A stretch of 56,626 nt of DNA, taken from NCBI GenBank assembly GCA_005882985.1, contig VBEJ01000038.1:1-56626 (forward strand), given 5' to 3'. Positions 25,728-28,649 of this stretch are shown one piece after another (position 1 is the stretch's first letter; each line of letters opens with the position of its first letter). The DNA comes from Chloroflexota bacterium (lineage in GTDB: Bacteria; Chloroflexota; Dehalococcoidia; SM23-28-2; RBG-16-64-32). The notes below the pieces were generated by a model. The model did not search any database and was not told the DNA's origin. It saw only the letters and a list, made by a program, of their open reading frames with translations. A program made the translations under genes and the position numbers.

Positions 25728-26495
25728 ATGGACTGGCTGGAGGTGTTCGGGTTGCTGACCGCCGCAGCCCTGGGGGGCGCGGTCAATGCGGTGGCCGGCG
25801 GCGGTTCGCTGATTAGCTTTCCGGCTCTCCTCGCCGCCGGCTATCCGGCGAAGACAGCCAACGTGACGAACACCGTCGCCCTGTGGCCGGGCTATCTCGG
25901 CGGCTCGCTTGGTTATCGGGAGGAGCTACGATACCAGCGGTGTCGCATCGCGCGCCTCGTCGTCCCAAGCGTTCTCGGAGCTTTCGCGGGGTCCGCCATT
26001 CTTCTCGCGACTTCTGACGGCGCGTTCGAGTACATTGTCCCTTTTCTGATTATCTTCGCGACCGGGCTTACGGCATTCCAGCGCCGCCTTACGGAGCTAG
26101 CCGAGACGCATCGACTGGCCGCACGGAGCGCGGAGGACACGCCGGCGCTGCTCGTGGCGGCCGTTTTCCTCTTCGCTGTTTACGGCGCCTACTTCGGCGC
26201 GGGATTGAGCATCATGGTATTCGCGGTGCTCAGCGTGTTAGTGCCGGACGACTTGCAACGGCTTAACGCACTCAAGGGATTGCTCTCGCTAATCATCAAT
26301 GCGGTCGCTGTCATTTATTTCGCCGCGTTCGGTCCTGTGGAGTGGGGACCCGCGGCGGTGATGGCGGTCGGAGCTCTCGCCGGCGGCTACCTGGGCGCCG
26401 GACTTGCCCGCCGCCTCGGCCAGGAGAGGCTAAGGTCAGCAGTCGTGCTGTTTGGCGCGGCGATGGCGGTCGTCCTCTCCTTGCGGTTGTTGTAG
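25728..26495 (+). CDS. TauE/SafE-family sulfite exporter-like membrane protein
   Basis: AALGGAVNAVAGGGSLISFPALLAAGYPAKTANVTNTVALWPGYLGG. Confidence 0.9.
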   Translation: MDWLEVFGLLTAAALGGAVNAVAGGGSLISFPALLAAGYPAKTANVTNTVALWPGYLGGSLGYREELRYQRCRIARLVVPSVLGAFAGSAILLATSDGAFEYIVPFLIIFATGLTAFQRRLTELAETHRLAARSAEDTPALLVAAVFLFAVYGAYFGAGLSIMVFAVLSVLVPDDLQRLNALKGLLSLIINAVAVIYFAAFGPVEWGPAAVMAVGALAGGYLGAGLARRLGQERLRSAVVLFGAAMAVVLSLRLL

Positions 26496-26572
26496 GGCCG
26501 TCGGGAGAACCGTGCCCTGGTCGAATCTATCTTGCGATCTGAGAAGGATGCGGAGATATAATGTTCGCGCAC

Positions 26573-27571
26573 ATGAAGTACCGGACTCTCGGCGATACCT
26601 CGATCCAAGTATCGGCTGTCGGCTTCGGGCTGTGGACGATCAGCACCGGCTGGTGGGGCATTGAGGACGATCTGCGCGGCGTCGAGCTACTGAGGAGGGC
26701 TTTCGACTCCGGCGTCACGTTCTTCGATACGGCCGACGCGTACGGGCAGGGTAAAGGGGAAACGATTCTCGCAGACGCGCTCGGAGAAGTGCGCGATCGC
26801 ATCGTCATTGGGACCAAGTTCGGGTACGACTTCTATAACTATACGGGCGAACGGGACGGCCACAAGGAACTACCTCAGGATTTCTCGCCGAAGCACATCA
26901 CCTTCGCCGTTGAGCAAAGCTTGAGGCGCCTGCGTACGGATTACATCGACATCTACCAGATTCACAACCCGCGGATGTGGGCTGTCCGTAGCGATGAGCT
27001 TTTTGAGACGCTCGACAAGCTAAAGGCGGACGGTAAGATCCGCTGCTACGGCGCCGCGCTCGGCCCTGCTAACGGCTGGGAGGCTGAAGGGCTGGCGCTG
27101 CTGCGGGAGCGTGAGATCACGACTCTCCAGATCATCTACAACATGCTCGAGCAAGACCCGGGCCGCAGCCTTATCGCGGTTGCTGAAGACAACGGCGTGA
27201 GCGTGTTCGTGCGCGTGCCGCATTCGTCCGGGCTGCTGGAAGGAAGGTACACTCTCGAAACGACTTTCCCTGCGAGCGATCATCGCAGCCACCGGCCTCG
27301 CGAATGGCTCACCAAAGGGCTCCAGAAGCTCGAAAAGCTCGCGTTCTTGGCCGACGGCACAGGCAGAACGATCGGACAAGCGGCGATTCAGTTCGTGCTC
27401 GCTTCGCCCTCCGTCGCCTCCGTCCTGCCGAATATCTACGATGCGGAGCAACTCGCGGAGTTCGTCGCCGCCGCGGATACGGCTCCGCTAACGGAGGACG
27501 AGATGTCGTCCATCGCCGAGCTTTACGAACGAAACTTCGACCTGTCGACAGTGGTGGCCGCCCAAGGGTGA
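26573..27571 (+). CDS. aldo/keto reductase
   Basis: MKYRTLGDTSIQVSAVGFGLWTI, GVTFFDTADAYGQGKGE, LRTDYIDIYQIHNP. Confidence 0.93.
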   Translation: MKYRTLGDTSIQVSAVGFGLWTISTGWWGIEDDLRGVELLRRAFDSGVTFFDTADAYGQGKGETILADALGEVRDRIVIGTKFGYDFYNYTGERDGHKELPQDFSPKHITFAVEQSLRRLRTDYIDIYQIHNPRMWAVRSDELFETLDKLKADGKIRCYGAALGPANGWEAEGLALLREREITTLQIIYNMLEQDPGRSLIAVAEDNGVSVFVRVPHSSGLLEGRYTLETTFPASDHRSHRPREWLTKGLQKLEKLAFLADGTGRTIGQAAIQFVLASPSVASVLPNIYDAEQLAEFVAAADTAPLTEDEMSSIAELYERNFDLSTVVAAQG

Positions 27572-27599: not shown

Positions 27600-28649
27600 A
27601 TGAGCGAAAGTCCGCAGGAGACCAAAGGCCGACGGCAGGTCGTGAAGTTCTCGTTCTATCACGTTGACCCCGCCTGGCGTGGGTTGCCCGAGGAGGAGCG
27701 AGAACGCGGCAAGCGAGCACTCGGGGACGTTGTGCGGGCGTTCTCTGACCGTGTACAAATCCGGAGCTACAGCCTCGTCGGCACGCGTGGAGACGCCGAT
27801 TTGCTGCTCTGGCAGATCTGTGACCGGCTTGATGATATTCATCAGCTTGCCGGCTTCATCAATGGCACGCCAATGGGTCCCTATCTGACGATGCCCTATT
27901 CGTACGTGGCGATGACGCGTCCTTCGGTCTATGTAGGTCGCAATGAGGCCCGAGCGGAACGAATGGTGCTGCATCCCCGAGATTCGAAGTACTTATTCGT
28001 CTATCCATTCGTGAAGACCCGCGAGTGGTACCGGCTGCCGCTTGACCACCGTCAGACGATGATGGACGAACACATCCGCATCGGCCGTAAATACCCCTCG
28101 GTCAAGTTGAATACGACATACTCGTTCGGTCTCGATGATCAGGAATTCGTCGTCTCATTCGAAACCGACGAACCGGCGGACTTCCTCGATCTCGTAATGG
28201 AGCTTCGCGAAGCCAGGACCAGCCTCTACACCCTGCGTGACACGCCCATTTTCAGCTGCCTCGCTATGGGCCTCGACGAGGCGCTGGATTCACTGGCCCG
28301 CGCGGGCGAGAATGGGAGCGTACCGGCGGCGAAAGTCACGTGGCAGAAAGTAGCTGACGCTTCGGACATCCCGCCAGGTTCCAGCCGAGTCGTGTACTAT
28401 GCGGGCGACCAAGTCGCGATATTCAACGTGAGTGGAGAGCTTCACGCCGTCAGCAATCGATGTCCACATGCCAACGGCGCGCTGGGCGACGGCGTTGCGG
28501 CGGATGGCTCGGTGACGTGTCCTTCCCACGGGTCTCGCTTCGACCTCGCCACTGGCCAGCCCCTCGAAGGCCCGGCAGCGCGTCCAGTGCGCACATATGG
28601 CCTTCGCGTCGAGCAGAACGGTGTATTATTGGGGCCGTCCAAGGGCTGA
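27600..28649 (+). CDS. chlorite dismutase/HemQ-family domain fused to C-terminal Rieske [2Fe-2S] domain
   Basis: Cld/HemQ-like KFSFYHVDPAWRGLP..., YLFVYPFVKTREWYRLPLDHRQTMMDEHIRIGRKY, FGLDDQEFVVSFETDE; Rieske CPHANG...CPSHGSRFD. Confidence 0.88.
   Translation: MSESPQETKGRRQVVKFSFYHVDPAWRGLPEEERERGKRALGDVVRAFSDRVQIRSYSLVGTRGDADLLLWQICDRLDDIHQLAGFINGTPMGPYLTMPYSYVAMTRPSVYVGRNEARAERMVLHPRDSKYLFVYPFVKTREWYRLPLDHRQTMMDEHIRIGRKYPSVKLNTTYSFGLDDQEFVVSFETDEPADFLDLVMELREARTSLYTLRDTPIFSCLAMGLDEALDSLARAGENGSVPAAKVTWQKVADASDIPPGSSRVVYYAGDQVAIFNVSGELHAVSNRCPHANGALGDGVAADGSVTCPSHGSRFDLATGQPLEGPAARPVRTYGLRVEQNGVLLGPSKG

What the first reader, a model, noticed from the sequence alone, without database searches (positions are those of the whole stretch)
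27600..28649. Fusion of a chlorite-dismutase/HemQ-family domain with a Rieske [2Fe-2S] ferredoxin domain
N-terminal ~240 aa match the Cld/HemQ dimeric alpha+beta barrel. C-terminal ~100 aa carry a complete Rieske motif (CPH-x16-CPSHGSRFD). By eye, the MMDEHIRIGRKY His fits the proximal haem ligand. The residue aligned with the catalytic distal Arg of true chlorite dismutases seems to be non-Arg (VKLNTTYSFG), arguing against chlorite chemistry. A built-in 2Fe-2S centre suggests electron delivery to a haem/coprohaem site.
Basis: partly seen in the sequence, partly recalled or inferred. Interest (0 to 1): 0.68.

Follow-up and report, generated by a model that had tools for sequence, protein, structure and literature searches.

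The report
Haem-making enzyme fused to iron-sulphur domain
This gene encodes a relative of coprohaem decarboxylase, the enzyme that finishes haem, with its own iron-sulphur electron carrier attached; it travels with an aldo/keto reductase gene in bacteria that appear to make haem from sirohaem, many of which lack the known oxygen-sensitive enzymes for the last steps.

Summary
The fusion is real. One ORF (27600-28649, 349 aa) holds PF06778 (E 1e-57) and a complete Rieske domain (E 7e-20). It recurs in 22 genomes of the class and in other phyla, so it is not an assembly artefact. Catalytic Tyr135, Trp143 and proximal His158 of coprohaem decarboxylase (ChdC) are conserved; the chlorite-dismutase Arg position is Leu170. 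Fused relatives elsewhere lie beside HemH/HemE, which supports ChdC chemistry.

The larger result is the context. The gene follows an aldo/keto reductase (AKR). Among 294 class genomes the AKR orthologue is in 78 of 80 with Cld and sirohaem decarboxylase (AhbAB) but no ferrochelatase, in 0 of 15 with Cld and ferrochelatase, and in 1 of 58 with AhbAB+AhbC but no Cld. AhbC is missing from 55 of those 80. In two other lineages one polypeptide is Cld-Rieske-AhbA-AhbB, again downstream of the AKR.

I conclude: a Rieske-equipped ChdC-like enzyme ending a sirohaem-dependent, probably oxygen-tolerant haem route, with the AKR as candidate for the missing AhbC step. Loss of the loop His of unfused relatives fits Rieske-fed oxygen activation, but that correlation fails correction for ancestry. 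No activity was tested.

The parts
27600..28649 (+). Cld/ChdC-family + Rieske fusion protein, 349 aa
27702..28262 (+). Chlor_dismutase (PF06778) domain, aa 35-221
   Evidence: also the only PF06778 place found in this genome
27924..27974 (+). Interdomain loop (about aa 109-125) that holds the distal-base His in actinobacterial ChdC and a His (HxHEG or PEH type) in nearly all unfused relatives; no His at that place in the window (SVYVGRNEARAER)
28002..28004 (+). Tyr135, equivalent of the catalytic Tyr of ChdC
   Evidence: invariant in alignment A1; aligned with S. coelicolor ChdC
28071..28073 (+). His158, proximal haem ligand
   Evidence: invariant in A1
28107..28109 (+). Leu170, position of the catalytic distal Arg of chlorite dismutase (Gln in the ferrochelatase-linked members L069 and L071)
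28308..28334 (+). Linker aa 237-245, predicted disordered (pLDDT < 50)
28338..28598 (+). Rieske [2Fe-2S] domain (PF00355), aa 247-333, ligands C288 H290 C307 H310
26561..27571 (+). Aldo/keto reductase, 336 aa, 28 bp upstream on the same strand; catalytic tetrad D56 Y61 K86 H135 conserved in 38/38; candidate partner enzyme

Best explanation
The window protein is a coprohaem-decarboxylase-type (ChdC/HemQ-like) enzyme with a built-in Rieske [2Fe-2S] domain that carries out the last step of haem b synthesis (coprohaem to haem b) in bacteria that make haem from sirohaem instead of through uroporphyrinogen decarboxylase and ferrochelatase. Proposed route: sirohaem -> (AhbA-AhbB) 12,18-didecarboxysirohaem -> (the AKR encoded directly upstream where AhbC is absent; AhbC where present) coprohaem -> (Cld-Rieske protein) haem b. 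The Rieske centre is proposed to pass electrons to the coprohaem iron, so that O2 (or a reduced oxygen species made in place) can form the ferryl/Tyr135 radical that oxidises the propionates, in place of free H2O2 activated by a distal His. Shown here by computation: fusion, conserved ChdC residues, intact Rieske ligands, two genomic contexts, AKR/AhbAB/ferrochelatase co-occurrence, a Cld-Rieske-AhbA-AhbB polypeptide. Inferred: substrate, order of steps, electron flow and the role of the AKR.
For: PF06778+PF00355 in one ORF, conserved in 22 class genomes. ChdC Tyr135, Trp143 and His158 invariant across 29 aligned sequences; no Arg. Fold matches ChdC and Cld. Twelve homologues with the same fusion in Gemmatimonadota, Ktedonobacterales, Anaerolineae and others lie near HemH and/or HemE, none with AhbAB in its genome: the coproporphyrin pathway. 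In the window's class, no ferrochelatase in any fused-type genome and no full-length HemE there, only one partial hit in G217; AhbAB family present in nearly all. Clusters AKR > AhbAB > Cld > SirC > HemA in unfused relatives. AKR co-occurrence 78/80 vs 0/15 vs 1/58. Out-of-class test: 4 of 5 AKR-linked loci lie in genomes with AhbAB, 0 of 12 HemH/HemE-linked ones do. Cld-Rieske-AhbA-AhbB fusions L082 and L085 directly behind the AKR gene. Haloferax volcanii uses a ChdC-domain fusion (PitA) for aerobic haem synthesis although it has only Ahb genes upstream (PMC5746218).
Against: No biochemical data. The window protein scores below the NCBIfam HemQ equivalog cut-offs (122 vs 235 bits). The own genome is 83% complete, so each absence in it is weak alone; it rests on relatives. 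Its AhbAB is a divergent member below the AhbA/AhbB equivalog cut-offs and truncated at a contig end. The loop-His/fusion anticorrelation is not significant once ancestry is allowed for. The Rieske domain could serve another role, and its reductase is unidentified.
Confidence: 0.66

Rival explanations
1. The Cld-Rieske protein itself takes over the AhbC step (removal of the two acetate side chains of didecarboxysirohaem), or does both that step and the decarboxylation, and the AKR is only a supporting reductase.
For: AhbC is missing from 55/80 Cld+AhbAB+ genomes; AhbA-AhbB is fused directly to Cld-Rieske in L082 and L085, which suggests hand-over of didecarboxysirohaem.
Against: Close homologues, fused and unfused, sit in HemE/HemH operons where the substrate should be coprohaem, so decarboxylation alone explains the conserved Tyr/His; the AKR, not the Rieske domain, tracks the sirohaem branch.
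Confidence: 0.14
2. The protein is an ordinary H2O2-dependent ChdC; the Rieske domain serves a side role (priming reduction of ferric coprohaem, redox sensing, peroxide generation, or stability of the oligomer).
For: Catalytic residues are intact; many relatives work without a Rieske domain; the fusion state changes at least 3 times on the tree, so it is dispensable.
Against: The Rieske ligands are invariant across the class members and the architecture recurs in several phyla; the loop His is missing in 36/41 fused but present in 69/76 unfused proteins (not corrected for ancestry).
Confidence: 0.25
3. Chlorite dismutase or a general haem peroxidase with a ferredoxin domain, not a biosynthetic enzyme.
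For: PF06778 is named chlorite dismutase; Foldseek gives Nitrospira Cld as top hit.
Against: No distal Arg (Leu170); haem-synthesis neighbours; co-occurrence with AhbAB or ferrochelatase.
Confidence: 0.03
4. The AKR is unrelated to the AhbC gap; another unlinked enzyme does that step, or these bacteria import porphyrins.
For: Only the linked gene was profiled here, not all genes; 24 of 25 Cld+AhbAB+AhbC+ genomes have the AKR as well; all genomes are from one class and many are MAGs.
Against: The AKR follows Cld+AhbAB even where it is not adjacent (for example G030, G089, G190, G230, G239, G292) and is absent with ferrochelatase; full catalytic tetrad.
Confidence: 0.35

Closest known systems
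Coprohaem decarboxylase ChdC/HemQ, actinobacterial type (S. coelicolor 9MIQ, C. diphtheriae 6XUB)
   Same: Fold, catalytic Tyr135 and Trp143, proximal His158, non-Arg distal position
   Different: Extra C-terminal Rieske domain; distal-base His of the linker loop missing; below the equivalog cut-off; sirohaem-branch context without ferrochelatase
PitA of Haloferax volcanii (ChdC domain + ABM-like domain)
   Same: A ChdC-domain fusion protein in an organism with the Ahb sirohaem route and without UroD/CgoX/CpfC; supports aerobic haem synthesis (PMC5746218)
   Different: PitA's partner domain is ABM-like with a His-rich linker, not Rieske; H. volcanii keeps AhbC and AhbD, while many genomes here lack AhbC
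Sirohaem-dependent (Ahb) haem pathway: AhbAB, AhbC, AhbD
   Same: AhbAB family present; AhbA-AhbB even fused to Cld-Rieske in L082 and L085; SirC and HemA neighbours in relatives
   Different: Radical-SAM AhbC is often absent (55/80), and ChdC-like protein plus AKR take its place in the gene set
Rieske ferredoxins of ring-hydroxylating dioxygenases (HcaC, AndAb, BphF)
   Same: Rieske domain sequence and ligands
   Different: Tethered to a haem-enzyme domain; no ring-hydroxylating oxygenase partner

Membership tests
Coprohaem decarboxylase (ChdC/HemQ) | PF06778 alpha+beta barrel fold | tested here: met
   Pfam E 1.1e-57; Foldseek to ChdC structures
Coprohaem decarboxylase (ChdC/HemQ) | Catalytic Tyr (C. 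diphtheriae Y135) and proximal His (H158) | tested here: met
   Tyr135 and His158 invariant, aligned with S. coelicolor ChdC
Coprohaem decarboxylase (ChdC/HemQ) | NCBIfam HemQ equivalog cut-off | tested here: not met
   122 vs 235 bits (NF042928) and 82 vs 253 (NF008913); I therefore call it ChdC-like, not a filed member
Coprohaem decarboxylase (ChdC/HemQ) | Distal-base His of the linker loop (actinobacterial type only) | tested here: not met
   No His in the loop of the window protein; missing in 36/41 fused, present in 69/76 unfused
Coprohaem decarboxylase (ChdC/HemQ) | Converts coprohaem to haem b with H2O2 | not testable with these tools
   Needs biochemistry
Chlorite dismutase | Catalytic distal Arg | tested here: not met
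   Leu170; also non-Arg in all aligned relatives
Rieske ferredoxin | CxH...CxxH cluster ligands | tested here: met
   C288, H290, C307, H310; motif in 22/22
Coproporphyrin-dependent haem pathway in this genome | HemE and ferrochelatase present | tested here: not met
   No HemE or HemH in G000 (83% complete) or its two same-genus genomes
Sirohaem-dependent (Ahb) haem pathway in this genome | AhbA/AhbB sirohaem decarboxylase | tested here: inconclusive
   Divergent member over the PF17805 cut-off but under the AhbA/AhbB equivalog cut-offs, truncated by the contig end
Sirohaem-dependent (Ahb) haem pathway in this genome | AhbC (and AhbD) | tested here: not met
   Only generic radical-SAM matches in G000, G196, G252
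Aldo/keto reductase (upstream gene) | PF00248 and Asp-Tyr-Lys-His catalytic tetrad | tested here: met

The most novel reading that the evidence does not exclude
An oxygen-tolerant sirohaem-to-haem route in which an NAD(P)-dependent aldo/keto reductase replaces the radical-SAM enzyme AhbC (redox-neutral loss of two acetic acids from didecarboxysirohaem) and a Rieske-driven, O2-using Cld-family enzyme replaces AhbD; in some lineages sirohaem decarboxylase, Cld and Rieske domains form one polypeptide that hands over the intermediates.
Probability: 0.35. Interest if true: 0.9.

Novelty: new variant of a known kind. Interest (0 to 1): 0.76.

Why it matters
How aerobes make coprohaem from sirohaem without oxygen-sensitive AhbC is open; the H. 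volcanii study allowed for an unknown coprohaem-forming process (PMC5746218). This locus names two linked genes that make the question directly testable. If right, it adds an enzyme class to haem synthesis, could explain haem supply in deep-branching aquatic Chloroflexota whose annotated pathways look incomplete, and gives a Cld-family enzyme that may use O2 and electrons in place of H2O2.

Tried and rejected
Assembly artefact: rejected (22 fused genomes in the class, several phyla). Chlorite dismutase: rejected (no Arg). Ordinary coproporphyrin pathway in this genome: not supported (no HemE/HemH). Loop-His loss as proof that the Rieske domain replaces the distal base: tested with independent pairs on a tree; only 3 changes of fusion state, too few to be significant. 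Plasmid search: only unfused HemQ of 28-38% identity among the listed hits and no record covering 80% of the query. Literature searches for the Cld+Rieske architecture and for an AKR in sirohaem-to-haem conversion found nothing relevant in the open library. Key mechanistic and survey papers (ACS Catal. 2020 on the distal His; Kim et al. 2021 on haem auxotrophy) are not held.

Full report
OBSERVATION. The ORF at 27600-28649 (+) encodes 349 aa. Pfam finds Chlor_dismutase at aa 35-221 (E 1.1e-57) and Rieske at aa 247-333 (E 7.1e-20). It is the only PF06778 gene found in this 2.6-Mb, 83%-complete genome. Searching 294 genomes of the class gave 22 complete fused proteins counting the window's own (55-80% identity to it) plus one cut by a contig end; unfused relatives are common. 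A scan of named genomes found the same architecture in Gemmatimonadota, Ktedonobacterales, Anaerolineae/Thermoflexus and Hydrogenedentes MAGs. The fusion is real and conserved.

ACTIVE SITE. Tyr135, Lys139, Trp143 and His158 are invariant in 29 aligned homologues and align with the S. coelicolor enzyme. The position of the chlorite-dismutase Arg is Leu170; two ferrochelatase-linked members (L069, L071) have Gln there. The loop that holds the distal-base His in actinobacterial ChdC (17 residues before the catalytic Tyr in the aligned structures) has a His in 69 of 76 unfused relatives but lacks one in 36 of 41 fused proteins. On a tree the fusion state changes only 3 times, so this association is descriptive and not statistically independent. 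The AlphaFold model has pLDDT 83.6, pTM 0.65 and a disordered linker at 237-245; Foldseek matches are Cld and ChdC.

TWO CONTEXTS. (A) In Gemmatimonadota, Ktedonobacterales, Anaerolineae and others, twelve fused genes lie near HemH and/or HemE, and none of these genomes has AhbAB: the coproporphyrin pathway, where the substrate should be coprohaem. (B) In the window's class the gene follows an aldo/keto reductase gene (window 26561-27571, 28 bp upstream; overlapping or nearly touching in many relatives). In unfused relatives the cluster reads AKR > AhbA-AhbB sirohaem decarboxylase > Cld > precorrin-2 dehydrogenase > HemA. One genome has a second Cld copy fused to a precorrin-2 dehydrogenase domain (L045).

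GENOME-WIDE TEST. In the class, ferrochelatase is absent from every fused-type genome and from most others with Cld. Full-length HemE was found only in two genomes with ferrochelatase, with a partial hit in fused-type G217 and a weak one in G230, out of 45. AhbAB family proteins are present in 80 of 89 Cld+ genomes without ferrochelatase but in 1 of 15 with it. AhbC is strong in 58 of 69 AhbAB genomes without Cld but in only 25 of 81 with Cld. The AKR orthologue (E < 1e-80) is in 78 of 80 Cld+AhbAB+HemH- genomes, 0 of 15 Cld+HemH+ genomes and 1 of 58 Cld-AhbAB+AhbC+ genomes, and in none of 103 genomes with none of these genes. It follows even where it is not linked. Its catalytic tetrad is conserved in 38/38. 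AhbC, where present, usually stands beside a second radical-SAM gene (TIGR04053/AhbD-like), so it looks like a separate, probably anaerobic alternative, as AhbD is in H. volcanii.

OUT-OF-CLASS TEST. Before searching the named genomes for AhbAB I expected it in AKR-linked and not in HemH/HemE-linked ones. Result: 4 of 5 versus 0 of 12. Two AKR-linked loci (L082, 726 aa; L085, 791 aa) encode Cld-Rieske-AhbA-AhbB in one polypeptide directly downstream of the AKR. This ties the Cld-Rieske unit to sirohaem decarboxylation.

MECHANISM. Shown by computation: architecture, residues, co-occurrence, fusion with AhbAB. Inferred: the Cld-Rieske protein turns coprohaem into haem b; the Rieske centre supplies electrons for O2-based formation of the oxidant; the AKR fills the AhbC step. 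By formula (own calculation) didecarboxysirohaem C40H44FeN4O12 minus coprohaem C36H36FeN4O8 is two acetic acids, so the step is redox-neutral overall and does not by itself require radical-SAM chemistry. That is a consistency argument only.

LITERATURE. H. volcanii PitA (ChdC + ABM) supports aerobic haem synthesis in an organism with Ahb genes and without UroD/CgoX/CpfC, and its authors leave open an unknown route to coprohaem (PMC5746218). A review notes mixed pathway enzymes in Chloroflexota, citing Kim et al. 2021 (PMC10991733). No paper in the open library combines chlorite dismutase with a Rieske domain or an AKR with sirohaem-to-haem conversion; subscription journals were not searchable.

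LIMITS. Most genomes are MAGs; absences rest on many relatives, not on one. The window genome's AhbAB is divergent and truncated. The Cld list was cut at weak matches, so very divergent Cld proteins are not counted. AhbC calls used E < 1e-95, none over the curated cut-off. Genomes of one class are not independent observations. No enzyme activity was measured.

Noticed in passing
L082:4998-7175 and L085:1180-3552: Four-domain polypeptides Cld-Rieske-AhbA-AhbB (726 and 791 aa) directly downstream of an AKR gene.
   Followed up: yes
L045:1826-3253 (genome G212): A second Cld-family copy fused to a precorrin-2 dehydrogenase (SirC/CysG-N) domain, 476 aa, without Rieske, beside a CheW-domain gene.
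   Followed up: partly
L100:712-1443 and 1543-1845 (Rokubacteria MAG): Cld-family protein and a 101-aa Rieske ferredoxin as separate adjacent genes, the split form of the fusion.
   Followed up: partly
control genomes Sulfolobus acidocaldarius and Deinobacterium chartae: Both have Cld and AhbAB-family matches but no ferrochelatase and no AhbC match below 1e-20, the same gap as in the window's class.
   Followed up: no
L156, L157 (genomes G148, G016): A second AhbA/AhbB set as two separate adjacent ORFs in addition to the fused AhbAB; function unknown.
   Followed up: no
L152:3902-4987 (genome G111): A radical-SAM gene related to AhbD/TIGR04053 between HemE and ferrochelatase in a Cld-containing coproporphyrin operon.
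   Followed up: no
window 25728-26495: TauE/SafE-type sulfite exporter gene upstream of the AKR, kept at that place in several genomes of the same family (window, L003, L032, L034, L049).
   Followed up: no
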